A stretch of 64,000 nt of DNA from Bifidobacterium sp. 7101. Its GTDB lineage: Bacteria; Actinomycetota; Actinomycetes; Actinomycetales; Bifidobacteriaceae. The translations under genes and the position numbers were made by a program. Below are positions 1 through 40,184 of the stretch, one piece after another. The stretch's first letter is position 1. Every line of letters starts with the position of its first letter. The notes beneath the pieces are model-generated. The model was given only the letters and a program-made list of their open reading frames with translations, searched no databases and had not been told where the DNA came from. Where the stretch lies: contig NZ_AWUN01000002.1 in NCBI RefSeq assembly GCF_000499285.1, positions 248,001-312,000 on the forward strand, given 5' to 3'.

Positions 1-1
1 T

Positions 2-3000
2 GGAGCTGTTGCTCCGACTGCCTCACCATCACCGCTGGCCAGCAACAATCCTTCACCATTCAAGTCCATCCAACTGTTCAACAGCAAAAGGGCGGACAGA
101 TCGTTCAGGGACAGCTCACCGAGAGACAAGTCACCGCAGACCAGGGATTCATCCTCATATACCCTCACCTTCGAGCCCGACGGGGGCTCGCTGGTATCCG
201 GCTCGCCTGCCCTGAGCCAGACAGTAGCCTCAGGTCATCTGGCATCCCCACCTGCTGTCAACAAATCAGGCTACCTGTTTGACGGATGGTTCCTCAAAGG
301 CTCCAACGTCGCTTATGATTTCGGCAAGCCGGTCACCAGCACGCAGTCGCTGACGGCCCATTGGTCATCGGTCAACGATGGTCAGTGGACGACAACCGAC
401 GTCAACGGCGACGACACCGGCGGCTCTGCTATCACCCTTACGCCCCCCAAGCCAAGAGGGGTCAGATTCGCGCAGGTTAGCGCCGGCCACGACCATACAC
501 TGGCCGTAGGCTCGGACGGCCACGTCTACGCCTGGGGAGACAACAGCAAGGGCGAGCTTGGCGACGGCACCACAATCAACAAAAACACGCCGGTGCGGAT
601 CACCGAAAACGACGCCATCAAAGGCAAGACCTTCATATCCGTCAGCGCAGGGACCACTTTCTCCATGGCCTTGGCCTCCGACGGCACCGTCTACACCTGG
701 GGCGACAACAGTCGCGGCGAACTCGGCAACGGGTCCACCACGAATTCTTCAGTACCGGTAAAGGCAAATCTTAATGCCACCATCACCGCCATCAGCGCCG
801 GATACTGGCATGCCATGGCCCTGTCCTCGAGCGGGACGATCTACACATGGGGAGACAACCAATACGGCCAGCTCGGCAACGGGCACACGGGCGTCAACGT
901 CAACTCTTCACCTGCAGCGGTCTCTTCATCCGGCGTCACCTTCACCACCATCAGTGCCGGATACGATTTTCAAACGGCGCTGGACAGCCAAGGACATGCC
1001 TACGCCTGGGGACGCAACCAGGGCGGCCAGCTCAGCATCGGCACCATGGACGGCACCAGCAGTGGTTCCAATGTCTACACTCCATCGCGCATTTACGGCG
1101 ACTCGACCGGCAACCCAGACAGCACTGTCTACACCGACATCGATGCAGGGTACCTGCACGTCCTGGCACTGAGCAATACAGGCAAGGTGTACTACTGGGG
1201 TTATCCCCTGACCAAGGGCAATGACGCCAATGCCGACAGCGTCCACTCCTTCTATCCCAGCCTGGTAAGTTTGCCCACGGAAGCGGCGACGCCTGTTTCA
1301 GCCAGCGCCGGGGACTACTCCTCTGCGGTGGTCGACTCTGCGGGCAGCCTGTATATGTTCGGCAGCAATTCCAGCGGCCAGCTGGGCGACGGCACCACAA
1401 AGCCCAAATCAACTATGACCAAGGTGAGCCTGACAGGCGTCACGGTCACTGCATTCGATGTCTGTCGGCACAGCCTGGCCATTGGTTCGGACGGGCTCCC
1501 CTACAGCTGGGGGGAAGCGAAAAACGGCAAGCTGGGACAAGGCAGCAAGGGACCTCAAAGCGGTTCGCAGACCACGCCTGCAGCGGTCGGCCCGCCCCAG
1601 ATAGACCTGGCCAAGGTGACCTTCGGCAGGACGGATGTAGCCAAGACCGACACCAACAGCCCGATTAGCCGAACTTCAGCAGGCGACGATACCTGGAGTT
1701 CAAATACCCCATGGACGGTCACTACCCCGCACCACACTTACGGAACCACCAAGATCAGGATCAACGACGGTCAATGGTCCATTGGCGGCGCCGCACAGCA
1801 GGGGCAAAGCATCGGCAACTATACATTCACACCCACTGCCCAGAAGATCACCTTTGATTCGGACGGAGGCTCATCAGCCTCGGACCAGTTCGTCACCGCA
1901 GGCAAGCAGGCTTCACCTCCCACCGTGACCAAGGCAGGTTCCCTCTTCGACGGCTGGTTCATCAAGGAGGCAGACGGCAGCTCCAATGTGGCCTACGACT
2001 TCAGCAGTCCTGTCACCGAGCCACTGAATCTGAAAGCGCATTGGTCTTCGTCAGATATGAAATGGAAGACCTCGGATGCCCTCCATGGCGACGACACCGG
2101 GGGCTCCAAAATCACCCTGACTCCTCCCAAGCCCAGAGCAGTGAGGTTTGCCCAGGCCAGCGCCGGGCGCTACCACACCCTGGCTGTGGGTTCTGACGGA
2201 CACGTCTACGCCTGGGGAAATCAGGCCAGCGGCGGACTGGGGAACAGCAAAGACTCAGGCACGGCGGCCACACCAGTACGGATCACCGAAAATGATGCCA
2301 TAAAAGGAAAAATCTTCATAGCCGTCAGCGCCGGCGACGCTTATTCCATGGCCCTGGCCTCGGACGGCACCGTCTATACCTGGGGCAGCAACGGCAAGGG
2401 ACAACTCGGCAACGGCACTACCGATAATTCCAACGAACCAGTAAAGGCACAGACAGGCGATGCCAAAATCACCGCAATCAGCGCGGGACGGGCATACGCC
2501 ATGGCCCTGGCCTCGGACGGCACGGTCTACACCTGGGGCGACAACACTCAAGGCCAGCTCGGCAACGGCAGCTCAGACAAAGACAGCCCTACCCCTACCA
2601 AGGTCACGGCGTTGTCCAACATAACAGCCATCAGCGCAGGATTTACCTCGGGTACGGCCCTGGACAGTCAAGGCCATGTCTGGACTTGGGGCGAAAACAC
2701 CAAGGGGCAGCTCGGCAACGGCGCCTCTAATGGCAGTCCGACTCCGACACGTGTCCAAGACCTAGGCACCGGACAGCCTGATACCCGGTTCTATATCGCC
2801 ATCAGCGCGGGCTACCAGCACGTGTTGGCACTGGATACGGATCATGACCTCTACGGATGGGGTTCCGGCACCGCCATCGGCTCCACTACAGATACCAACG
2901 TCAGCACGAGAGGATCCACCGCGATCAGTTTCGGAAACGAGCCCGTCAACATCACCGCCATCAGCGCAGGCGATGATGGATCGGAAGCCATAGACGACAG

Positions 3001-5299
3001 CGGAAGGATCTATACCTGGGGCAAGGAGGGTTACGGCCAGCTGGGCAACGGCGTGAACGACAATACGGCATGGCAGACCAATCCGAAAGCCATCACCCTG
3101 GCCCAATCGGTAAAGGCTTCCGCAGTGTCCACCTCCAGCCATCACCAGACGGCCATCGGGTCTGACGGATTGCTCTACACCTGGGGATACAGCTACTACA
3201 ACCAACTCGGACGAACCGGAGCGACCTCAGTGCCCGGCACCACACAGTCGCCGCAGATCACCCTGATTAAGGTCATCTTCGGCACCATGGCCAGCAGCAC
3301 CAAGCCGGCCACAAACCTGACCCAGACAGGCAAAGACACCTGGGATGCAAACCAGGATTGGACCTTCGTCACGCCCGCGTACCCGTACGGCCCCTCCAGT
3401 TTCACCATCACATGGACTATTGCCGACGATACCGGAGACTCGAGGCAGACACAGCAATTCGACTACACCTTCGATCGGACCAAGAAACGCATAACGCTTG
3501 ACCCTGAGGGAGGTACTGGAGCCGCATGGACAAGCAAGGACATCGAGGAAGGCGAATTGGTACCCCGACAGACCGTGGCCAAGACGGGCTTCCTGTTCGA
3601 CGGGTGGTTCGTCAAAGCGGCTGACGGCAGTTCAAATGTTGCCTACGACTTCGGCAAGCCGGTAACGGACCCGTTGACCCTGGTCGCGCACTGGACGCTT
3701 TCGTCGACTCAAATGACCGTCGACCCAACCGTCAGTCCGTCCACTGGCGGATACCAGGTCACCATCACTCCGCCCTCGCAGCGCGGCATCCGCTTCGCCC
3801 AGGTCAGCACAGGCAAAAACCATACCCTGGCTGTCGGCAGTGACGGCAATGCCTACGCCTGGGGAAACAACAGCACGGGACAGCTCGGTAACGGCAGCAA
3901 GGACAGCAGCAAGACGCCCATCCAAGTGAAGAAGCCATCCGGCGCAGGTACAGACTTCGCCTACATCCAGGTAAGCGCAGGATATGGATTCTCGTTGGCC
4001 CTCGGCAGTGACGGCAATGCCTACGCCTGGGGAGACAACGGCAGGGGGCAGCTCGGCAAGGGCACCGCAGGCGGCACCAACACGACGCCCGTCCAAGTGA
4101 AGAAGCCATCCGACGCAGGTACTGACTTTGCCTACACCCAGGTAAGTGCAGGAGGCTATCATTCCCTGGCCATCGGCAAGGATCATCAGGTCTACGCCTG
4201 GGGAGACAGGAGCAACGGCGGACAGGTGGGCGACGGCAACACGAGCGGGAACGCCCCTGCTCCTGTAGCTGTCAACGCAAGCGCCACCAGTCCTGGGTTC
4301 CAGGCAAGACAGGTCAGTGCGGGATATCAGCACTCTCTGATCATCGGCATAAGCGGGCAAACCTACGCCTGGGGATACGGCGACAGCGGTAGACTGGGCA
4401 ACAATGCCAAATCCTCACAGGCCACTCCTGTGTCGGTATCGTCACCCGTGCAATACGAGGACGGATCGATAGGATTCTTCGCCACTCAGGTCAGCGCAGG
4501 AGGCTCGCACTCCCTGGCCATTGGCAGAGACGGCAAAGCCTACGCCTGGGGTGCGAATACCGATGGGCGACTGGGCACCGGAGACACCAATGATGCAGCA
4601 ATACCAACCCTGGTGGCTGATCCTGACGGAGGCAGCGATGGATTCAAACCCACCGAGATCAGCGCCGGTGGATGGTTCTGCGCGGGAATCAACGACAAAG
4701 GGAAGATATACACCTGGGGAAACAATGGTCAAAACGCCCTGGGCAATGTCTCCATCTCAGGATCCATCAGCGCATCCCCCGTTTTGGTGAGCAAGGACGG
4801 CAGCAGCATACAGATCAGTGCAGGCGAGCGCCAAGTCCTGGCCATCGACTCCGACGGCATGGCCTACGGTTGGGGCGACAACAGCGGCAGACAGCTAGGC
4901 ACCAATTTGGACAGCACTTCCGTCAAAGCAGCAACTTTGGTCTGCCCGCCGCAATTGACCATCAGCTCAGTCACCGTCGGCACGGATCCGCATACTGCAT
5001 CAGTTCTTGAACTGACCCGGAGCGGCACAGCCGACGCATGGGGATCATGGAATACCTGGACCTTCTATACCCCAGCCTTCAAGGCAGGACGGACAACAGT
5101 CAATATCACCTGGAATGTGGGCCAAGGCAACTCTCAGACTGAGAGCCTTCCCTTTACCTACAGGGATATTCTGCCCCTGACCGGCAGCCAGGGTCTGCTC
5201 GTCATACTGCTTGTAGGACTTTTCGTGACGGTGACGGTCCTGGCGGCGAGGCAACATTACCTGGAAACAGCCCATCAGACTCTAGCCAGCACTCACTGA
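2..5299 (+). CDS. RCC1-repeat / InlB B-repeat LPXTG surface protein, 5' partial
   Basis: The reading frame is open from the left edge, so the start and signal peptide lie outside; 1765 residues are visible. A Ser/Pro-rich linker (nt 2-155) is followed by three modules. Each begins with an InlB/Listeria-Bacteroides B-repeat (motifs LFDGWF, AYDF.PVT, AHW; nt about 158-364, 1846-2044, 3484-3692). Next come a GG..ITLTPP strand, seven RCC1 blades of the form ISAG..H.LA...DG.VYAWG.N..GQLG (about 467-1560, 2147-3210, 3794-4910), and an Ig-like tail. The C-terminus has LPLTG (5171-5185), a hydrophobic stretch and an AARQH tail, so a sortase should link it to peptidoglycan. The role is inferred to be adhesion or ligand binding at the cell surface; no enzyme motif is seen. 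Modules A and B share nearly identical blade-1/2 linkers ([11 protein letters not shown]), a sign of internal duplication. It is the first of three paralogs. Confidence 0.9.
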
Positions 5300-5306
5300 T
5301 ACCTCA

Positions 5307-5344
5307 TGGCCGATGGCATAGGAGTTAACCCGTGCCGTCGGCCA
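5307..5344 (+). terminator. Hairpin after first RCC1 gene
   Basis: A 12-bp imperfect stem (TGGCCGATGGCA with TGCCGTCGGCCA, one T/G pair) lies 8 bases after the stop codon of the first surface-protein gene. A short T-rich stretch (GGTTTTCTTGT) follows about 10 bases downstream, so it probably acts as a rho-independent terminator of moderate strength. Confidence 0.5.
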
Positions 5345-5466
5345 CAAGAGCAGGTTTTCTTGTAGCTTCGTACTTAAAAAGCTCTTTACAATGATGACCG
5401 CCAAACAGTATCCTTCCTGATCGCCATTTACCCCTTTGAGGTGACAGACGGCCAGCTAGAGCCTAA

Positions 5467-5496
5467 TTGATATAAGCGCAGGTGCTCTGCTAAACT
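5467..5496 (+). promoter_or_regulatory. Putative promoter of phase-variable RCC1 gene
   Basis: TTGATA (5467-5472) and TAAACT (5491-5496) are separated by 18 bases in an AT-rich patch. They sit about 90 bases upstream of the ATG at 5584, which has a very strong ribosome-binding site (GGAGGAGG, 5571-5578). The intact promoter and binding site argue that the gene downstream is live and not a decaying relic. Confidence 0.45.
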
Positions 5497-5583
5497 ATTT
5501 AATGTAATGCCTGTTTTGCAGGCGGCACATTTTCAGCTCCGATCGGGGATTTCGGGCTGGTCTGTGCTTTGGAGGAGGAACTC

Positions 5584-8500
5584 ATGGGGAAGCAACAGCT
5601 TATTCGCGGCGTTTTCACGGTATTGACCACGCTCGGCCTGTGCGCTGTTACTGGTTTGACCTGCGCTAACGCGGCTCAGGATTTTGCTCCCGCTTCCCAA
5701 GAACAAAGTTCATATGAGAATCGAGGGGGGGGGGGGGTCGGAAGTTAAATATACCTTATTATCCTAATAATATTGAAGCAGGAACTAACGATAAAACCCC
5801 CCATTCATCCTCGGCATCATCCCCTATCCCCTCACCATCTTCCTCGCCGCTGAACTCGTATTCGCCGTTTCCATCATCCCCGACTCTATCGTCTCCCTCG
5901 CCTCTGAGTATCCAATCTGCTCCAGTTCCGCAAATCGAATCCAGCTACCAAGTATCGTTCAATCCGGCAGGCGGATTGCCTACTCCGGAAACGCAAAATC
6001 TACAAAGCGGGCAAAATGCCCAACGACCTGCTGACCCCACCCGTCAGGGCTTCTCCTTCGATGGCTGGTTCAATGGCGATGTTGCCTATGACTTCAGCCA
6101 GCCTGTGACATCAAATCTAGCTCTAACAGCTCATTGGACGCCAGTCAAGGGCATCTGGAGCATGAATCCAGACCACGGGAGCACCCAGGGAGGCACCGAG
6201 GTGACCCTGACGCCTCCTCAGCCTCGAGGCATACGCTTCACCCAGATCAGCGCAGGAGCTTACCACAACCTGGCCTTGGCATCCGACGGAAGCACCTGGT
6301 CCTGGGGACTCAACGGCTCCGGACAACTGGGCAACGGCCAACACGCTACTGGAAATAAGAACATAAGCTATACGGACAATAGCGCCAGTAAGGCAACGCC
6401 TGTCAAGATCCAGTCACCAGCCAATATACGTTTTACGAAAGTCTCCGCCGGCTTCTACCACTCCCTGGCCTTGGACAACGACGGTAACGCCTGGGCCTGG
6501 GGACTGAACGGAACAGGACAGCTGGGTATCGGCGTTGATCCCGGAACAAGCACCACTAGCAATTTCAACAATACCGCAGACAAGGATCAGCCCACCAAGG
6601 TAGTCATGCCAACTGGAGTTCACTTCACCAAGATCAGCGCCGGAGGGGTAGAATCGCTGGCCCTGGACGATCATGGCAGAGTCTGGGCCTGGGGACTCAA
6701 CAATGCCGGGCAACTGGGAACAGGGACGGGAGATAAGAGCAATCCGGTACAAAACAAACCTGTTCAGATACGGATTCCCGACGACTCCCGAATAACTGCC
6801 ATCAGCACCGGTTGGTTCCATTCCCTGGCCTTGGACGAACAGGGCAGGGTCTGGGCCTGGGGACTGAATGGATCAGGCCAAATCGGCAACGGAAAGAATG
6901 GCACCAGCTATATGGATGGGAGCGTCAACGCCCCCACTCCCACCCTTTCGCAGTTACCGAATACAGTCGTCATAAAACAGATTAGTGCCGGAGCCTACCA
7001 TTCCCTAGCAATCGACAACACAGGACAGGCTTGGGCCTGGGGATTGAATAGTTCAGGCGCACTAGGCAACGGCGCTAAGGGCAGCAAAGGAATCTGGGAT
7101 GCGGAAAGCACAAGTGCGGATACAAACAAACCAGTTCAAGTTCAGGTACCAGGCGGCACCAAGTTCATGCAAATCAACGCCACCGCTTACCACACCACAG
7201 CCATTGACGAGGCAGGTCAAGCCTGGGCCTGGGGACTCAATGGCTCTGGCCAACTAGGCAACGGACAAAGCGGGAGCAACTATATCGACAATTCAGTCAG
7301 CGTCGCCAAGCCGAACAAGGTGGAGATGCCCAATAACATCCATGCCGTCCAGATATGTGCTGGATACTCACACTCTATTGCTCTTGGCAGCGATGGGCAG
7401 ACATACTCATGGGGGTACAATGCCTCTGGCCAATTAGGCAATGGAAATACGATTCAAGGCGGGATCTGGGATGATACCAGCGAGGAAGAGGACACTTCCC
7501 ATCCAAATCCAGTGCTCTTCCCGGAACCAGCACGTATCACCGGCGCCAAATTTGACGGGATACCCAGTACGACCATCCCATCCAGGCAAGCCAATGGGAC
7601 GTGGAAGATAACATCACCTGCCCACCCCGAGGGACTGGTGAAGCTGGATGTTGACTGGAGTATGGAGGGAACCCGCCCAACCGAGCAATTCGATTATCGC
7701 TACCTCTCTGCCACCAAGCACAAGGTCACCTTCATGACCAGCGAAGATTCATCCGCACCTCCATCCCAGTGGGTTGACGATGGCGGGCAGGCTGTTCGCC
7801 CTGTTTCCGATCCCGTCCGAGCAGGCTGGTTGTTTGACGGATGGTTTTTAAATGAGGTCGCATACAATTTCGCTGATCCTGTGGTCAGAGATATGACCTT
7901 GGCCGCGCATTGGACTAAGGGGGATGGATCGTGGAGCACAGATCGCAAGCAAGGGGCAACAACTGGCGGTGACAATGTGATCTTGACACCTCCGGCTGCC
8001 CGAGGTATCAAGTTCAGCCAGGTCAGTGGTGGTGATGCCTTCTCCTTGGCCCTCGGCAGCGATGGAGCCTTGTATTCGTGGGGATCGAATGCTAAGGGCC
8101 AACTTGGGATCGGCAGTGCTGGTTCAAAAGACAATTCCGCATTAAGAGACACGCCTACCAGAGTCGCAGCACCCCAGGGGGCACGTTTCATCGCCGTCAG
8201 CGCGGGAGGTTTGCATGCTCTGGCCTTGGACAGTTCTGGACAAGCCTGGGCTTGGGGCATGGACGGTTCGGGGCAGCTAGGGGATGGCCGAAACGGCTCG
8301 GGTACCACAGATGATTCCGTCAACAGTACCGCTCCTGTAAAAGTCCAGATGCCAACGGGTGTCCGATTCACACGAATTGCCGCTGGCTACTATCACTCCC
8401 TGGCCTTGGATGAACAGGGCGGGGTCTGGGCCTGGGGACTGGATGGTGCAGGTCAGCTAGGCGATGGACATCTGGGATCGGACCGAGATGACAATACGGT

Positions 8501-9584
8501 CATTGCCAAGGCCCCAACTAAGGTGAAGTCACCCACCGGAGTCAAATTCACGCAAATCGCTTCTGGAGCATACCACTCACTGGCATTGGATGACACTGGC
8601 AAGGTCTGGGCCTGGGGACTCAACGGAACGGGACAGTTGGGCAATGGCGAGAATGCCGGTGCTGTTGGTCTTAACTCAAAAAGCAAGAGCCTGCCGACAC
8701 GCGTTTCAATGGATGGGAACACCCGAATCACCCAGCTTGCCGCAGGAGCCTACCACTCACTGGCCTTGGACAACACAGGACAGGTCTGGGCCTGGGGACT
8801 CAATAGCTCAGGCCAGCTGGGTATGGGCACGAGCGCTTCCTCCATATGGGACTATACCAAGGCAAGCTTGAGCAAACCCACAGCGGTCAAGCTGCCTTCC
8901 GATGTCACCGCAACCCGCATTGCATCTGGCTACTATCATTCCACGCTCGAAGGCACCGACGGGAAGTGGTACACCTGGGGACTGGACGCGTCAGGCCAAT
9001 TAGGCGATGGGAGAAACAGCACCTCGTGGCGGGCTAACGATGTCATTACTACCAGCCCGTCATCTCCTCAGACTCTCGCCGGACACGCATTTAACAGACT
9101 GGAAGCAGGCGGATACCACACCGTGGGGATCGGCGAAGATGGCGAGCTGTACGCTTGGGGACAGAACAGCTCCGGTCAACTCGGCAACAAAAAGCATGGC
9201 GACCCATCTGTATGGGACGACCCTTCCACCTATATGAATACCCCCGTAAAGGCTATCTTCCCTGGCGAGCCCAAAGCTGAAAGCGTCACTTTCGGACAGA
9301 CCCCCAGCCCAGGCACTCCGACTGATCTTCACAATGGCACCTGGCTGGTCACCACTCCCTGGCACGCACCTGAGGAAGTCACCGTCACCATTGCGTGGAG
9401 CCTGAACGGTTCCGCGGAACCGGACGACACCACTAACACTTACAAATACATACAGTTAGGGGTTCTTCCCCTGACCGGGCAGCAAGGCATCATGACCGCC
9501 CTTCTAGTCGGACTCATACTTGCTAGCAGCGGACTGGCCGCCAGACGACATCGCATGAGCCAAAAAGTCCACGGTATCATGTGA
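5584..9584 (+). CDS. Phase-variable RCC1/B-repeat LPXTG surface protein (out of frame at a 13-G tract here)
   Basis: The ATG at 5584 follows GGAGGAGG and encodes a clear signal peptide (MGKQQLIRGVFTVL, then a hydrophobic core, cleavage near ANA-AQ). The frame enters a run of 13 G and stops at TAA 5746-5748 after 54 codons. The rest of the protein is open in another frame from just after the tract to 9584; one extra G (14) or two fewer (11) would join them into 1333 residues. After a Ser/Pro-rich linker come two modules: B-repeats (about 5950-6137 and 7720-7915), each followed by a GG..VTLTPP or GG..VILTPP strand, seven RCC1 blades (about 6235-7440 and 8009-9190) and a TIG-like tail. LPLTG (9465-9479), a membrane segment and an AARRHR tail end it. 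The body has no disabling mutation, so a reversible slipped-strand switch is more likely than a pseudogene. Function is inferred as surface binding. Confidence 0.85.
5725..5737 (+). repeat. Poly-G tract (13 G), probable phase-variation switch
   Basis: Thirteen consecutive G residues directly follow codon 47 of the signal-peptide reading frame. With 13 the frame ends nine bases after the tract; with 11 or 14 it continues into the large RCC1 protein. Long mononucleotide runs of this kind are known slipped-strand sites, and poly-G tracts have been reported to control bifidobacterial pilus genes. Confidence 0.9.
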
Positions 9585-9656
9585 ACCTGAAGCCGTCCCA
9601 CTACCATTCTTGACACGAGTAAGGAAAGTCGGGAGCACACTCAACAATCCCGACAC

Positions 9657-9697
9657 GGGGTGGTCCCGCCAACCCCCAAGTACAACGGGACCACCCC
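9657..9697 (+). terminator. Hairpin between RCC1 gene 2 and chorismate mutase
   Basis: A perfect 12-bp stem (GGGGTGGTCCCG / CGGGACCACCCC) with a 17-base loop lies 72 bases after the stop of the second surface-protein gene. That gene converges with the chorismate mutase gene, so the hairpin may serve both, although no clear T-run follows. Confidence 0.55.
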
Positions 9698-9845
9698 ATT
9701 ACTCCACTATGAGTAATGCCAAATCCCTCCTAAGCTTCATAATTCCACAGACAGCAAGGGCAAGCTTGCCACCTTTATCCCTATCGGCCAAGAAGCTCGG
9801 GCGCTGACCATTTCGCAGAGCCGGAGGTTGTGCATTTAAATCGCC

Positions 9846-10202
9846 TCAGCGTGAGTTGGCCTGGCTGGCCAGCCGTTCGTGCTCCCGCTTGGCGGCATCG
9901 GCCACCAGATGCAGATAGGCCTCAGCTAGCTCAGGATCCAGCCCATAATCATCAGCCTTGTCTCGCAAGACAGCTATTTGTGCACTCTCCCGGTGCATAT
10001 CCGCCGAGGCGAATCCTGCCTGGGCCTTAAGCAGACCGATGCGGTGGGTCACCCGGAACCGTTCAGCCATCATGGCGACTATGGCGGCATCAATGGTGTC
10101 CACATCTGCACGCAGCTCCTCCACCTGGCGGGCGGCCTGGGATTGTGGACCCCCGCTCTGCGCCTGGTCATCGATCACTGTTTCCATCTTTGCATCGCTC
10201 AT
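9846..10202 (-). CDS. Chorismate mutase (AroQ type)
   Basis: This 118-residue protein should convert chorismate to prephenate in the cytoplasm, the entry step to phenylalanine and tyrosine. After a short Gln-rich lead, an all-helical AroQ-type domain starts at VEELRADVDTIDAAIVAMMAERF, with the helix-1 Arg and the RIGLLKAQAG segment (Arg and Lys that bind chorismate in the family). It continues through ...RESAQIAVLRDKADDYGLDPELAEAYLHLV. Length fits stand-alone monofunctional enzymes. It sits alone on the minus strand between two surface-protein genes, converging with one and diverging from the other, so it looks like an older chromosomal gene around which the paralogs are arranged. Confidence 0.88.
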   Translation of the reverse strand: MSDAKMETVIDDQAQSGGPQSQAARQVEELRADVDTIDAAIVAMMAERFRVTHRIGLLKAQAGFASADMHRESAQIAVLRDKADDYGLDPELAEAYLHLVADAAKREHERLASQANSR

Positions 10203-10365: not shown

Positions 10366-13300
10366 ATGAAGATGGTACGTAGTCGTCGCGTCACACTGCT
10401 CGTCAGCCTATGCTGCGTCTTAGTCGCCTGCAGCATGCTCGGCCTGCAATTCGGTCAAGCAGCGCCGGAAGCCAATGAGACCGCAGTCGCAACTCAGGGA
10501 AATGGAGCAATTGGTACTGGAACCAATACTCCCGGACAGATTCCCTCGGTTTCCCCCGGTCCGTCATCATCACCGTCGGGCATGCCCACCCTGTCCAATG
10601 GCTCTGGTGCCGTGGCAACAGGAAAATCAGCGCCTGCCGCCAGCACATCGCCCACCTCGCCGTCCTCGCCGTCGCCCGGCGCCACTGGTTCTTCGGATCC
10701 GACCCCGACTGCCGCATCCCCGTCGAATACCACCAGCCACACAGTCACTTTCGACTACAACATGCAGTCTGCAACTCCGACAACTTCGACTGTGGCTGAT
10801 GGCGCCCAGGTTGCGCGCCCTAGTCCTGACCCCACCCGCCGAGGATTCGTTCTCGAAGGATGGTTCGCAGGAAAGGTAGCCTACGACTTCTCCGCTCCTG
10901 TACACGCGGACCTGACCCTGAAAGCCAAGTGGGCCCGCGCCGACCAGACCTGGACCATGCAGCCACAGGAGGGCCCCGAATCAGGAGGTACCGGGGTGAC
11001 CCTTACCCCACCCCCGCCCTCCGGTGTCCGTTTCAGCCAGGTCAGTGCAGGCATCCGGTTCTCCCTGGCTTTGGGATCGGATGGCAATGTCTACGCCTGG
11101 GGCTTTAACCGTGCTGGTCAGCTGGGCGATGGCACTATTGTCGACCGGTCAACGCCCATAAGGGTGCCCCGGCCCGAAGAAGTCCGCAATGACAAGGATT
11201 TTCGGTTTGTCAGCGTCAACGCTGGGCAATTCTTCAGCATGGCCCTGGACAACCATGGCACCCTCTGGTCCTGGGGTTACAACTATCTGAAGACCTTGGG
11301 CAACCCCAATGTGGCCGACAGTGGCATGCATAACTACTCGGAATACCCGGTCAAGGTGATGCTGCCTGAAGGGGCACCAGCTGGATTCACCTACAAGGCC
11401 GTCAACGGCAATTACACCCACATCTTGGCCATAGGATCGGATGGCAACGTCTACGCCTGGGGCACCTGCGGCGACGGAGAGAGCGGCAGAGATGACTGCA
11501 CCGGCATATGCGACTACAGACCCAACCTCATCAAGGGATTCGACCAAAACCATAAAATCATAGCTGTGCAGACCGGATTGGACTACTCAACCGCTCTGGA
11601 CGACGCTGGCACGGTATGGTCATGGGGAAGCAATCTTTTCCACCAGTTGGACCCATCCGCCGGTGCGGCCGTTGGCAACTATAAGCCAATCAAGATCCAC
11701 GGCCTTGACAAGGTCCATGTGGTGGCCATCGCAGACGGCTTCGAGAACACCCTGGCCCTGGATGACCAGGGAAGGGTCTGGACCTGGGGAATGAACGAAA
11801 CCGGCCAGATCGGCAACGGGTCAAGCGCCAGCAAGACCGACGTGTTCAAAGACCCGGTTCAGGTCAGCTTCCCGCAGGGGACCAGAATCACCGCCATCAC
11901 TGGCGGCGGCAATTACCATCTCAGCCATGCCATGGCTCTGGATTCCAATGGCGATATCTGGACCTGGGGCGACAACAGCTACGGACAAATGGGCGACGGT
12001 AAGACCCCTGCAGCAGACAGCCCCCAGACCACTCCGGAACGTTTGGAGGATCCGAAGCTTGCCGGTCGACACTGGATCAGCATCGACGCTGGCGAGGAGT
12101 ATAACCTGGCTATCTGCGACGACGGCCAGACCTACAGCTGGGGGAGAGACACCCAGGGTCAGCTGGGTCAGGGCACCAGCGGCGATACCGGCCATAATCG
12201 GCCCTCCGCGGTCGCCTTCCCCTGGCCGGCAAAATTGACAGGACTCCAATTCGACACCACGGATATCACCACCGGAATGAAGGCACAAAAGAACGGGACC
12301 TGGACGGCCACCACCCCACCACACGCCCCAGGGCTGGTGGATGTGACCCTGACATGGACCTTGAACGACCAAGAACAGACCCAGGTCCACCTGCCTTTCC
12401 GTTACCTGTCGGGCGGGGTGACTGTAACCTTCCAATCGGAGAGCGATTCACCAGCGCCACCCAGCCAGAGTCTGGAAGCGGGAGAGCGGGCAGTCCGCCC
12501 CAGTGCTGACCCGACCAAGGTCGGCTATCGCTTCGATGGCTGGTTCCTAGGCAAGACCGCCTACGACTTCTCCAAGCCAGTCACCAGTTCCATGACGCTC
12601 AAGGCCCACTGGAGCCCTGAGAGTCAGAACTGGACCATGACACCAGACCATGGAACCGAGATGGGCGGAACAAAGATCACCCTGACACCGCCAGCCCTGC
12701 GAGGCATTCGCTTCAGTCAGGTCAGTGCCGGTTCCCACTGGTCCCTGGCCCTGGGATCCGATGGGATGGCTTACGCCTGGGGCAAGAACAACAACGGCCA
12801 GCTGGGCAACGCGAACATTCCCAAGGGCAACGCCAGCACCATGCCGGTCCGAGTGGATATGCCCGAGAATGCGGAAACCGACTTCGTCTTCACCCAGGTC
12901 AGCGCAGGCGGTGACTATGGCCTGGCCCTAGGCTCCGATGGGAAGGTCTACGCCTGGGGCAACAACGATGTCGGCCAGCTGGGTGACTCCACCTTGGACG
13001 CCCAAAGCAGGCCCCACCTGGTACCCGGCCTGCCGGCCAAGATCCAGTCCATCAGCGCCGGCGGCGGGCATGCCCTGGCCTTGGATTCCCAGGGACGAGT
13101 CTGGTCCTGGGGCGCCAACCAATACGGTCAGCTGGGCTTGGATAACGCCGGCGGCGATGCCGTCTCACCAGACGGGCGAACCAGCCCTGCCATGGTGACC
13201 GGAATTCCGACGACCACAACGGCAATCAGCGCCGGAAGCCGGTATTCACTAGCCATGACCGTGGATGGACAAGTCTACGCCTGGGGCAGCAATGATTCCG

Positions 13301-14121
13301 GCCAGCTGGGCGATCCCACCCTGCCGGTCAAGGCTGACGGCGCCAACCCCACGCCGTCTGCGGTTCAAGGACTGACGGGCGAGATGAGCGCCATCAGCGC
13401 CGGAGACCATCAGGCTCTGGCCCTGGATTCCCAGGGACGCATCTGGACCTGGGGACAGGTCAAAGGTGAGAGCAAGAAAGTCCCCGCCCTATTGGCCCTT
13501 CCCGACGGACTGCCGACGGGGTTTGCCATCACGCAGATCAGCGCCGGCACCGGAGCATCCTCTGCTCTGGGTTCCGACGGGCGGATTCTGACCTGGAGCA
13601 ATGCCGCAGAGAGCGCAGATCCCACATTCTTGGCCGAACCCAAGGACGTGCCTGGAGATTTCAGGTTCACTGCCGTCAGCACGGGTGACTCGAGCTCATT
13701 GGCCCTGGGCTCTGACGGTCTGGCCTACGGATGGGGCGCCGACGATGCCGGCCAGCTGGGCGATGACCAGTCCGGACCGGACCTGAACAGCAAGACACCA
13801 CAGGCTGTCGTGATCAGAAGTCTGGTTAAGGCGGTCATCTTCGCCGGATTGTCTGCGGAGGGAACTCCGCAGTACCAGAATGGCACATGGTTGGCACTCA
13901 CTCCACGCTACAGGCCCGGACAGGTGGACACCGTCATTCAATGGAGCCTGGTAGGCGTAGATCAAAAGGATCAAACCCTGCCTTACACCTATGACCAGTT
14001 GGCCGTACTGCCCCTGACCGGCAGCACCGGCATGGTCCTGCTGGTCTTAGCCGGCTTGCTGGCCATGGGTGCGGCCATGGCTGCCAGATTCCAGCGGCGG
14101 GAGAAGAGGATGGCAGTATGA
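10366..14121 (+). CDS. RCC1-repeat / InlB B-repeat LPXTG surface protein
   Basis: The ATG at 10366 is chosen because GGGGGAGGA lies 10 bases upstream; a TTG at 10297 is in frame but lacks a good site. The protein has 1251 residues: a signal peptide (MKMVRSRRVTLLVSLCCVLVAC...), a long Ser/Pro/Gly linker to about residue 125, and two modules. Each has a B-repeat (about 10744-10930 and 12418-12610), a GGT.VTLTPP-like strand, seven RCC1 blades (about 11032-12170 and 12709-13760) and a TIG-like tail. LPLTG (14008-14022), a hydrophobic segment and RFQRREKR follow. Some blades are degenerate (blade 3 of module 1 reads TCGDGESG; blades 5-6 of module 2 lose the GQLG motif). No long homopolymer is present, so unlike its neighbour it should be constitutively in frame. 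TTGACA at 10257 may be its -35 box, with no convincing -10. Confidence 0.9.
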   Translation: MKMVRSRRVTLLVSLCCVLVACSMLGLQFGQAAPEANETAVATQGNGAIGTGTNTPGQIPSVSPGPSSSPSGMPTLSNGSGAVATGKSAPAASTSPTSPSSPSPGATGSSDPTPTAASPSNTTSHTVTFDYNMQSATPTTSTVADGAQVARPSPDPTRRGFVLEGWFAGKVAYDFSAPVHADLTLKAKWARADQTWTMQPQEGPESGGTGVTLTPPPPSGVRFSQVSAGIRFSLALGSDGNVYAWGFNRAGQLGDGTIVDRSTPIRVPRPEEVRNDKDFRFVSVNAGQFFSMALDNHGTLWSWGYNYLKTLGNPNVADSGMHNYSEYPVKVMLPEGAPAGFTYKAVNGNYTHILAIGSDGNVYAWGTCGDGESGRDDCTGICDYRPNLIKGFDQNHKIIAVQTGLDYSTALDDAGTVWSWGSNLFHQLDPSAGAAVGNYKPIKIHGLDKVHVVAIADGFENTLALDDQGRVWTWGMNETGQIGNGSSASKTDVFKDPVQVSFPQGTRITAITGGGNYHLSHAMALDSNGDIWTWGDNSYGQMGDGKTPAADSPQTTPERLEDPKLAGRHWISIDAGEEYNLAICDDGQTYSWGRDTQGQLGQGTSGDTGHNRPSAVAFPWPAKLTGLQFDTTDITTGMKAQKNGTWTATTPPHAPGLVDVTLTWTLNDQEQTQVHLPFRYLSGGVTVTFQSESDSPAPPSQSLEAGERAVRPSADPTKVGYRFDGWFLGKTAYDFSKPVTSSMTLKAHWSPESQNWTMTPDHGTEMGGTKITLTPPALRGIRFSQVSAGSHWSLALGSDGMAYAWGKNNNGQLGNANIPKGNASTMPVRVDMPENAETDFVFTQVSAGGDYGLALGSDGKVYAWGNNDVGQLGDSTLDAQSRPHLVPGLPAKIQSISAGGGHALALDSQGRVWSWGANQYGQLGLDNAGGDAVSPDGRTSPAMVTGIPTTTTAISAGSRYSLAMTVDGQVYAWGSNDSGQLGDPTLPVKADGANPTPSAVQGLTGEMSAISAGDHQALALDSQGRIWTWGQVKGESKKVPALLALPDGLPTGFAITQISAGTGASSALGSDGRILTWSNAAESADPTFLAEPKDVPGDFRFTAVSTGDSSSLALGSDGLAYGWGADDAGQLGDDQSGPDLNSKTPQAVVIRSLVKAVIFAGLSAEGTPQYQNGTWLALTPRYRPGQVDTVIQWSLVGVDQKDQTLPYTYDQLAVLPLTGSTGMVLLVLAGLLAMGAAMAARFQRREKRMAV

Positions 14122-38291: not shown

Positions 38292-39026
38292 TCAGGCAGC
38301 GAAAAGAACTTTGAAAATCGCGGCTCCGACGATGGCACCGGCGATGGGTGCCACCACCGGAATCCAAGCCTCGCCCCAGCGTGAGTCCCCCTTATTGGGC
38401 ACGGGCAGAATCCAGTGCAGGAAGCGTGGCACCAGGTCTCGTGCAGGGTTCAGACCAGGGCCAGTGGGACCGCCCAGAGAGGTGACCAACCCCCAGACGA
38501 TCAAGCCGACAACGATGGAGGCGGCGGCCAACCCCTTAGACCCCCATGGGCCCTGCAAACAGCAGAGGGCTCCCAGGACCAGCACCAGCGTGCCAAAGAG
38601 CTCATTGATAAAATAGTTGACCGGCGATCCCGAGGCATCAGTGGTGCAGAAGGTGCCCAAAATCGGCGCAGGCTCCTTGGTCATGCGGTAGTGCGGGAAG
38701 TAGCAGACATAGACAACCAGCTGACCCAGGGCTGCTCCAATCAACTGCGCGAGAATATAAGGCAGAACCTGACTCCAGGGGAAGATGCCGATGACGGCCT
38801 GTCCCAGAGTCATGGCCGGGTTGATGTGGGCTCCGGATACCCCGCCGAACATGAGCACTGGAAACATGACTCCGAACCCGTATCCCATGGCGATGGTGAG
38901 CCAGCCGGAATGGTGGCCCTTGGTGCCCTCCAGATCCACGTCGGCGACCGCGCCGTTGCCGAAGATCATCAATATGGCAGTGCCGACACATTCAGCGGCC
39001 AGCTTGGTCATGAGCGAATATTCCAT
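38292..39026 (-). CDS. Aquaglyceroporin (GlpF-like MIP family)
   Basis: A 244-residue channel with six membrane segments and the two half-helix NPA motifs: SGAHINPAMTLGQAVIG and GPGLNPARDLVPRF. The Asp after the second NPA box (NPARD) is the usual mark of glycerol-passing members rather than pure water channels. The N-terminus is chosen at ATG 39026. It is probably a glycerol or small-solute facilitator. An apparently gene-free 339 bases lie upstream. Confidence 0.92.
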   Translation of the reverse strand: MEYSLMTKLAAECVGTAILMIFGNGAVADVDLEGTKGHHSGWLTIAMGYGFGVMFPVLMFGGVSGAHINPAMTLGQAVIGIFPWSQVLPYILAQLIGAALGQLVVYVCYFPHYRMTKEPAPILGTFCTTDASGSPVNYFINELFGTLVLVLGALCCLQGPWGSKGLAAASIVVGLIVWGLVTSLGGPTGPGLNPARDLVPRFLHWILPVPNKGDSRWGEAWIPVVAPIAGAIVGAAIFKVLFAA

Positions 39027-39365
39027 TCGACCCTTCACCCCTCTCTCGATGCCGCCTTGTGACCAAGGCACGGGCATCATTCAATAGAAACAGGTGATGA
39101 CACTAGACCGAGAAGCGCTCATGATCTCCATTGATTCAAGTAATTCTTTGAAATCCGATACGCACCAGCCCCAACCGCGTGTCACCATCAACACGACTGC
39201 ACTTCAACCGGCATAAATATTCTATGCCAACTACCACTGATTATGACGCATTGAGAATCGCATGGAGTGCACTACCTCTAGGGAAAACGAGCAGAGCCCC
39301 CCAACTCAATCAGGCACACAGACTTCATAAACCGCTGGAGCCTTATCCAGGGGGGGGGGGCAGTG
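39027..39365. other. Gene-free stretch upstream of aquaglyceroporin
   Basis: This 339-base stretch has no convincing coding frame. It holds AT-rich segments that could contain the aquaglyceroporin promoter and an 11-G run at its far end (39350-39360). No clear hairpin or known riboswitch pattern was recognised. Confidence 0.6.
39350..39360. repeat. Poly-G tract (11 G), intergenic
   Basis: Eleven consecutive G (C on the gene strand) lie five bases after the stop codon of an ECF ATPase gene and about 320 bases upstream of the aquaglyceroporin start. Its length is likely unstable. No gene frame crosses it, so any effect would be on RNA ends or a distant promoter. Confidence 0.85.
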
Positions 39366-40184
39366 TCACTGATTTGTCAGTAATGATGTCTGGGGCAGGG
39401 CCGCCATGAAATCCTCAGAGGTGAGCACGTCGTGGAAGCCCCAGGCCTGGGCCAACTGCGCCAGATAGGGACGGGCCAGATGAGCCTGTTCAAGCAGATC
39501 ATCATCCCTGAAGATCCGAGCGATGGGCCCATCCATGAGGATCTGTCTGTCGGCCATGACAATGCCCCGCTGGAAATGACGAGTGACGAACTCCATGTCA
39601 TGACTGATGGTGATGACCGTCTTACCCATTGCCGTCACCTGCTGGATTATCCCTGCCAGCAGGTCCGTAGCGGCCCTGTCCTGACCGGCGGTAGGCTCGT
39701 CCAGAATCAGCACCTGAGGGTCCATGACCAAAGCCGAGGCTATGGTGACGAACTTGCGCTGCGAGAAGGGAAGGTCATAGGGATGGGAATCCAGGCTGTC
39801 ACCCAAACCGCAGACTTCAGCAGCCCAGGCGACCCGCCCCCCGATACGGTCCCGGGCAACATGCTTTTTCACAAGCCCATAGGCTATTTCCCGGCGAATG
39901 CTGTCCTGGAAGATCTGATCATCCGGATTCTGGAAGACATAGCCGACCTTGGCTGCCACATGGGCGGCATCCTCTTGATCAGTTGCAGTCCCGTCCACCG
40001 TGACACGACCATGAGTGGGCTTGAGCAGTCCGTTCATGAGCTTGACCATAGTGGTCTTTCCGGCCCCGTTGCGGCCGATAATGGCAACAGCTTCCCCAAG
40101 CTCGCATGACAGGCTGACCTCCCGCAGAGCCTGATATCCGTTTGGATAGGTATATCCGACCCTGTCCAACTCAAGATAGGCCAT
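39366..40184 (-). CDS. ECF transporter ATPase (EcfA-type)
   Basis: A 272-residue ATPase that powers an energy-coupling-factor importer. Walker A is GRNGAGKTTMVKLM, the Q-loop region YVFQNPDDQIF, then PFSQRKFVTIASAL as a variant ABC signature (S-Q-R-K where most have S-G-G-Q-K-Q), Walker B LILDEPTAGQD, and ISHDMEFV. The missing glycines in the signature are unusual but shared by some EcfA proteins. It is the last gene of the ECF set, two bases after its partner. Confidence 0.9.
   Translation of the reverse strand: MAYLELDRVGYTYPNGYQALREVSLSCELGEAVAIIGRNGAGKTTMVKLMNGLLKPTHGRVTVDGTATDQEDAAHVAAKVGYVFQNPDDQIFQDSIRREIAYGLVKKHVARDRIGGRVAWAAEVCGLGDSLDSHPYDLPFSQRKFVTIASALVMDPQVLILDEPTAGQDRAATDLLAGIIQQVTAMGKTVITISHDMEFVTRHFQRGIVMADRQILMDGPIARIFRDDDLLEQAHLARPYLAQLAQAWGFHDVLTSEDFMAALPQTSLLTNQ

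What the first reader, a model, noticed from the sequence alone, without database searches (positions are those of the whole stretch)
5584..9584. Poly-G phase switch in a giant LPXTG RCC1 protein
A strong ribosome site and a good signal peptide are joined, through a 13-G run, to a long intact reading frame ending in LPLTG. The frames differ at 13 G but would match at 11 or 14 G. This is an ON/OFF slipped-strand switch; with 13 G only a 54-residue stub would be made. Poly-G control is known for bifidobacterial pili, but I know of no report for RCC1 surface proteins.
Basis: partly seen in the sequence, partly recalled or inferred. Interest (0 to 1): 0.92.

Follow-up and report, generated by a model that had tools for sequence, protein, structure and literature searches.

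The report
Poly-G switches in bee-symbiont surface propellers
A bee-gut Bifidobacterium carries a giant cell-surface propeller protein whose gene is interrupted by a run of 13 Gs that most likely turns it on and off by random gain or loss of single Gs, and related bifidobacteria carry many copies of the same kind of switch.

Summary
A ribosome site, an ATG (5584) and a signal peptide run through 13 Gs (5725-5737) into a stub that stops at 5748. The RCC1/LPLTG frame (1281 codons after the tract) lies in another register, fused at 11 or 14 G. Comparative evidence supports a slippage switch.

The one ortholog found (B. choladohabitans) has 15 G, also OFF, with the ON length still 2 mod 3 although the flanks differ by non-triplet changes. 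The long frame is under purifying selection (dN/dS 0.156, like its neighbours).

It is one of many. I identified 100 tract-bearing RCC1 genes with a signal peptide in 19 genomes of the genus: 29 ON and 71 OFF as assembled, 10-17 G. Closely related orthologs differ by one G. OFF frames are as intact and as constrained as ON frames. After the tract, wrong frames stop within 15 codons in 118 of 122 cases, against about a third in controls. A 27-bp element carrying two such stops follows a tract in 70 of 72 fetched copies.

The mechanism is known from bifidobacterial pili; my literature searches found no report for RCC1 proteins. Not shown: length mixtures within a clone, expression, or function. 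Assembled poly-G lengths are error-prone.

The parts
5467..5496 (+). promoter-like site (TTGATA-18-TAAACT, TG before the second hexamer); consensus match only
5571..5578 (+). Shine-Dalgarno sequence GGAGGAGG, 5 nt before the ATG
   Evidence: identical in the ortholog
5584..5748 (+). upstream frame: signal peptide and OFF-state stub (54 residues and stop at 13 G)
5725..5737 (+). 13-G tract, the proposed switch; fused frame at 11 or 14 G
   Evidence: 15 G in the ortholog (G011, L061)
5738..5767 (+). short stretch that closes both wrong frames (first stops 2 and 9 codons after the tract)
5718..9584 (+). long open frame of the RCC1 surface protein (gene B); 1281 codons after the tract
5946..6134 (+). 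first Listeria-Bacteroides repeat (Flg_new, PF09479)
   Evidence: residues 70-132 of P0002
6216..7529 (+). first seven-bladed RCC1 propeller (predicted fold)
   Evidence: model residues about 95-532 of window 5934-7658
7713..9398 (+). second Flg_new-plus-RCC1 unit (43% identical to the first)
9465..9479 (+). LPLTG sortase motif, followed by a hydrophobic stretch and a basic tail
5343..9844 (+). segment carrying gene B between neighbour A and the chorismate mutase-like gene; absent at the aligned place in G005 and G024
1..5299 (+). neighbour A: RCC1/LPLTG gene without tract (frame open from G000:C2:247765, before the window)
9846..10202 (-). chorismate mutase type II-like gene on the other strand between B and C
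10366..14121 (+). neighbour C: RCC1/LPLTG gene without tract

Best explanation
Gene B is a phase-variable, sortase-anchored surface protein. Translation starts at 5584 and makes a signal peptide. Slippage of DNA polymerase changes the G-run by one or a few bases (inferred). At 11 or 14 G the ribosome passes in frame into the RCC1 frame, and a large two-propeller protein is exported and anchored at LPLTG (ON). At other lengths it meets a stop within ten codons of the tract and makes a short peptide (OFF; the assembled state, 13 G). Many paralogs in this and related genomes have their own tracts, so a population would show a shifting mixture of propeller proteins (inferred). Shown by sequence: anatomy, phase relation, length differences between orthologs, constraint on OFF frames, early stops in wrong frames. 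Inferred: reversible slippage within a clone, expression, and a role in adhesion or in escaping whatever recognises the surface.
For: Both frames fit a split gene: SD, ATG and signal peptide in one, LPXTG protein without signal peptide in the other. The ortholog in G011 has 15 G; the flanks differ by a base that is A here and G there (joining one more G to the run) and by one base after the tract, yet the ON length is 2 mod 3 in both. dN/dS of the long frame is 0.156; neighbours A 0.141, C 0.187. OFF/OFF ortholog pairs have median 0.238 (23 pairs) against 0.253 for tract-free pairs (79). Orthologs differ by one G: G003 11 ON / G010 12 OFF (96.5% identical), G013 12 OFF / G024 11 ON (97.3%, though their signal-peptide regions differ more), G014 13 / G020 12 (both OFF, 98.7%). 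Of 100 tract genes 29 are ON. In cassette genes found by DNA pattern alone, the frame after the tract keeps at least 900 codons in 46 of 47 uncut OFF genes and 12 of 14 uncut ON genes. First stops in wrong frames lie within 15 codons in 118 of 122, against 44 of 122 in tract-free genes and 31% of 2940 random frames.
Against: No reads or sister strains: a mixture of lengths within a clone is not shown. Both known copies of gene B are OFF. Lengths are not spread evenly: 49 of 100 tracts are 12 G, and nearly all of these would turn ON by losing one G; among 61 surveyed tract genes 32 need -1 and 11 need +1. Cassette lengths cluster by genome (76 of 5000 shuffles as tight), which could come from relatedness, gene conversion or sequencing method. 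G024, rich in 11-G tracts, also has several frameshifted RCC1 genes, so its assembly may hold indel errors. Penno et al. warn that database G-tract lengths can be wrong. C3 in this genome has a second frameshift. Three ortholog pairs of one tract group have high dN/dS (0.54-0.65), as do five tract-free pairs (8 of 195 pairs above 0.5). My survey accepted a signal peptide only if in frame or followed by a G-run, so 'tract-free genes are in frame' is partly by construction.
Confidence: 0.8

Rival explanations
1. Re-framing happens in RNA, not DNA: RNA polymerase slippage or ribosomal frameshifting on the G-run makes a constant fraction of full-length protein whatever the DNA length.
For: 49 of 100 tracts are 12 G, mostly OFF, as if a fixed out-of-frame length were kept; the 16 tract genes identified in G020 are all OFF. 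Purifying selection on OFF frames would follow too.
Against: Orthologs differ in tract length and state, 29 of 100 genes are in frame in DNA, and tract-free genes with cassette or G-rich remnants are in frame. No unusual RNA structure around the tract (z 0.75).
Confidence: 0.1
2. The 13-G count is a sequencing or assembly error and the gene is simply in frame in all cells.
For: Poly-G lengths are hard to call; lengths cluster by genome.
Against: Even if single counts are wrong, long G-runs follow the signal peptides of many RCC1 genes, wrong frames are closed early, and flanks carry non-triplet differences that an ordinary gene would not keep.
Confidence: 0.07
3. Gene B is a pseudogene caught early after a frameshift in a G-run.
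For: It is out of frame in both species that have it; some RCC1 copies in the genus are broken.
Against: The long frame is open in both species, dN/dS 0.156, and ribosome site and signal peptide are nearly unchanged.
Confidence: 0.03

Closest known systems
G-tract ON/OFF replication-slippage switch of sortase-dependent pili in Bifidobacterium breve UCC2003 (bbr_0113, bbr_1889; Penno et al. 2022, PMC9187656; also noted for B. dentium PMC12104195 and B. bifidum PMC10757668, passages)
   Same: Upstream frame with SD and Sec signal, a G-tract, LPXTG frame in another register; productive change there mainly loss of one G, which is also what most OFF tracts here would need.
   Different: Here the product is an RCC1 propeller protein and no sortase gene lies beside it; up to 16 tract genes were identified in one genome (G020), against one or two tract-bearing pilus clusters per strain in their Table 1; a shared element with stops in both wrong frames follows many tracts.
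RCC1-repeat LPxTG proteins of bee bifidobacteria (Bottacini 2012 PMC3447821; Ellegaard 2015 PMC4449606)
   Same: Same family: Flg_new before each RCC1 domain, LPxTG anchor, tandem clusters, 7-24 genes per genome.
   Different: No hits there for homopolymer, frameshift, phase variation, poly-G or slippage, nor for homopolymer or frameshift (its three hits for 'phase' include growth phases in the passages shown).
Contingency loci of Neisseria, Campylobacter and Bordetella (recalled; related titles in the listing)
   Same: Many independent repeat-tract switches on surface genes in one genome.
   Different: Here a Gram-positive gut symbiont, LPXTG propeller proteins, and a paralog-shared cassette.

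Membership tests
RCC1-repeat LPxTG surface proteins of bee bifidobacteria | RCC1 repeats forming seven-bladed propellers | tested here: met
RCC1-repeat LPxTG surface proteins of bee bifidobacteria | Flg_new domain before each RCC1 domain | tested here: met
   two PF09479 stretches
RCC1-repeat LPxTG surface proteins of bee bifidobacteria | C-terminal LPxTG, hydrophobic stretch, basic tail | tested here: met
   tail read; the Gram_pos_anchor model PF00746 matched neighbour C but was not reported for B
Bifidobacterial G-tract replication-slippage switch | signal-peptide frame with SD, G-tract, LPXTG frame in another register without its own start signals | tested here: met
Bifidobacterial G-tract replication-slippage switch | tract length differs between related alleles | tested here: met
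   13 G against 15 G in the ortholog; one-G differences in other orthologs
Bifidobacterial G-tract replication-slippage switch | mixture of lengths within one clonal population | not testable with these tools
   no reads held
Bifidobacterial G-tract replication-slippage switch | first gene of a pilus operon with a dedicated sortase | tested here: not met
   the two sortase matches of this genome are on C7 and C1, not on this contig; the next genes are the opposite-strand chorismate mutase-like gene and RCC1 gene C

The most novel reading that the evidence does not exclude
Bee bifidobacteria run a combinatorial surface code: many RCC1 propeller genes each carry an independent G-tract switch, and a standard module (G-run plus a 27-bp element that puts a stop in each wrong frame) is kept by selection and copied between paralogs, so switches are gained, homogenised and lost (locked ON) as units.
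Probability: 0.5. Interest if true: 0.75.

Novelty: new variant of a known kind. Interest (0 to 1): 0.62.

Why it matters
It would give the large RCC1 surface family of bee bifidobacteria, whose function is unknown, a regulatory logic: cells of one clone would wear different sets of propeller proteins. Colonisation, aggregation or phage-sensitivity differences between cultures then become testable by counting Gs. It would also show multi-gene homopolymer phase variation, best known from pathogens, in a beneficial insect symbiont, and it warns that such genes may be annotated as fragments or pseudogenes.

Tried and rejected
Viral contigs held no exact match to the gene's start or to the tract-plus-cassette sequence. 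A stimulatory RNA structure at the tract was looked for and not found (z 0.75). A PADLOC match to AbiEi (E 0.0009, 47 residues inside the repeats) was dismissed as chance. The idea that gene B is inherited by all relatives was dropped. A and C lie about 0.5 kb apart with no B in G005, G013, G014, G020 and G024 (frame coordinates; aligned for G005 and G024). Its start region matched only G000 and G011 among 27 genomes. Its dS to G011 (0.09) is well below that of A (0.22) and C (0.28), so it may have moved between these two species.

Of 18 other G-runs of 10 or more examined in this genome (one more was not fetched), 15 have no stop-to-stop frame over 200 codons through them, so such runs are not simply common inside genes. 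I did not treat the assembled ON/OFF state as a measured state, because homopolymer counts are unreliable. Rows dropped: 11 of 158 RCC1 frames under 900 codons, 9 at locus edges and 16 without a recognised signal peptide stayed out of the state counts. The 16 include one orthologous group of 10, the broken C3 gene, and two G007 genes that do have 11-G runs. The union re-admits four shorter frames with tracts. dN/dS covers 195 of 207 reciprocal pairs (the rest had a frame under 900 codons), without the first 120 codons. The RCC1 places came from a listing that was cut off, so counts are lower bounds; loci came from 20 of 27 genomes of the genus. A Foldseek PDB job could not be placed; the VIA-align look was used. 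In one search my recount of the second stop used a wrong index and printed 0; the figure 70 of 72 is read from the letters listed.

Full report

Setting. The window is in the genome called G000 (contig C2, 248001-312000; 2.117 Mb). That these are honeybee-gut species is recalled and fits the RCC1 papers. G000 has 14 giant RCC1 frames and two sortase matches on other contigs. Gene B stands between two RCC1/LPLTG genes without tract (A, C), as a segment of about 4.5 kb that is absent from the aligned place in G005 and G024.

Is it more than chance. The 9-G pattern alone is not unusual for the window (9 of 100 shuffles reach the count). The genome has 25 runs of 10 or more G (counted); six are within 260 nt after the signal-peptide start of RCC1 genes, against about 0.02 expected.

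Ortholog test. The ortholog has 15 G and is also out of frame as assembled. The flanks differ by an A/G difference that joins one more G to the run there and by one base after the tract; the ON length is 2 mod 3 in both species. An ordinary gene could not keep a one-base difference of this kind; a gene whose tract can re-phase it can. The long frame has dN 0.014 and dS 0.090 (ratio 0.156); A and C between the same species give 0.141 and 0.187.

Genus survey. Regions around RCC1 places listed (a cut-off list) were fetched from 20 of 27 genomes of the genus. A script found 158 RCC1 frames of 500 or more codons, 147 of 900 or more: 61 with a tract of at least 9 G after a signal peptide (18 in frame, 43 out), 61 with an in-frame signal peptide and no such tract, 16 without a recognised signal peptide, 9 at locus edges. 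Because the script accepted a signal peptide only if in frame or followed by a tract, the tract-free class is in frame partly by construction. A 27-bp sequence found right after many tracts, TCGTCAGACCCCTCRYGTAGCNRAGCA, was then searched in all 27 genomes: 73 places in 11 genomes with up to 2 mismatches, none for the reversed pattern. Of 72 copies recovered from fetched DNA, 70 follow a run of 11-17 G; the other two have no tract, are in frame with a signal peptide, and have frames that end early (400 and 204 codons). Joining both sets gives 100 tract genes with a signal peptide in 19 genomes: 29 ON, 71 OFF; lengths 10 to 17, 49 of them 12.

OFF genes are alive. Among cassette genes (found by DNA, not by open frame) 46 of 47 uncut OFF genes and 12 of 14 uncut ON genes keep at least 900 codons after the tract. 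dN/dS in OFF/OFF ortholog pairs has median 0.238 (23 pairs, range 0.15-0.43); tract-free pairs 0.253 (79 pairs, range 0.126-0.687). Eight of 195 pairs exceed 0.5, three of them in one tract group. Pairs share ancestry and are not independent.

Length changes. G003 (11, ON) and G010 (12, OFF) are 96.5% identical; G013 (12, OFF) and G024 (11, ON) 97.3%, although their signal-peptide regions differ more; G014 (13) and G020 (12), both OFF, 98.7%. In two orthologous groups some species have a tract and others an interrupted G-rich stretch, and three tract-free genes carry remnants of the cassette-encoded peptide: switches are gained or lost.

Stops in the wrong frames. After the tract, the first stop in each wrong frame comes within 15 codons in 118 of 122 cases (61 genes), against 44 of 122 from a like position in tract-free genes and 31% of 2940 frames from random positions. 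In the cassette the two stops are TAG and TAA/TGA: TAG is present in 72 of 72 and TAA/TGA in 70 of 72 (read from the letters). The two that lack the second stop have no tract (G000) or no recognised signal peptide (G001). The TAA/TGA difference changes Lys to Glu in the ON frame but keeps the stop in the wrong frame. The window's own gene has a different flank, with stops 2 and 9 codons after the tract. The four exceptions over 15 codons are three tracts about 56 nt after the start and one G019 gene.

What speaks against. There are no reads. Assembled G-tract lengths can be wrong (Penno et al., Discussion). The excess of 12 G, the excess of tracts that need -1 over +1 (32 against 11) and clustering by genome (76 of 5000 shuffles as tight) are not explained; the main productive event in B. 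breve pili is also loss of one G. One tract gene of this genome has a second frameshift (C3). RNA-level re-framing is not excluded.

Literature. Penno et al. 2022 (PMC9187656; abstract and sections 12, 15, 21, 22 read) show the mechanism for pili; 'RCC1' has no hit in its main text. Two later papers extend it to pili of B. dentium and B. bifidum (PMC12104195, PMC10757668; passages; no RCC1 hit). Ellegaard 2015 (PMC4449606, passages) and Bottacini 2012 (PMC3447821, passages) describe the RCC1 family; the phase-variation terms tried there had no relevant hit. Searches whose listings showed no report of phase variation in these proteins: (open-licence papers; many papers are not held).

Verdict.

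Noticed in passing
G000:C1:63840-63852 (locus L089:2841-2853): A 13-G run near the start of an ABC-transporter permease gene (PF00528), in frame with one possible start and out of frame with another; a possible poly-G switch on a transporter.
   Followed up: partly
window 39350-39360: An 11-G run just past the end of an ABC ATPase gene (39366-40184, minus) and about 270 bp upstream of an aquaporin-family gene (38292-39080, minus); could affect a promoter.
   Followed up: partly
G000:C1:168339-169664 (locus L091): Three G-runs of 11-13 within 1.3 kb with no long frame around them.
   Followed up: no
window 5343-9844: Gene B is less diverged at synonymous sites from the G011 copy (0.09) than neighbours A (0.22) and C (0.28), suggesting exchange between the species.
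   Followed up: partly
genomes G006, G007, G017, G023 (unnamed): There the G-tract lies about 56 nt after the start, inside or at the end of the signal peptide, a second architecture that may have arisen separately.
   Followed up: partly
G000:C1:440731-444294 and orthologs in 9 other genomes: An RCC1 group of 10 genes with a hydrophobic N-terminus but no good start codon or ribosome site found.
   Followed up: no
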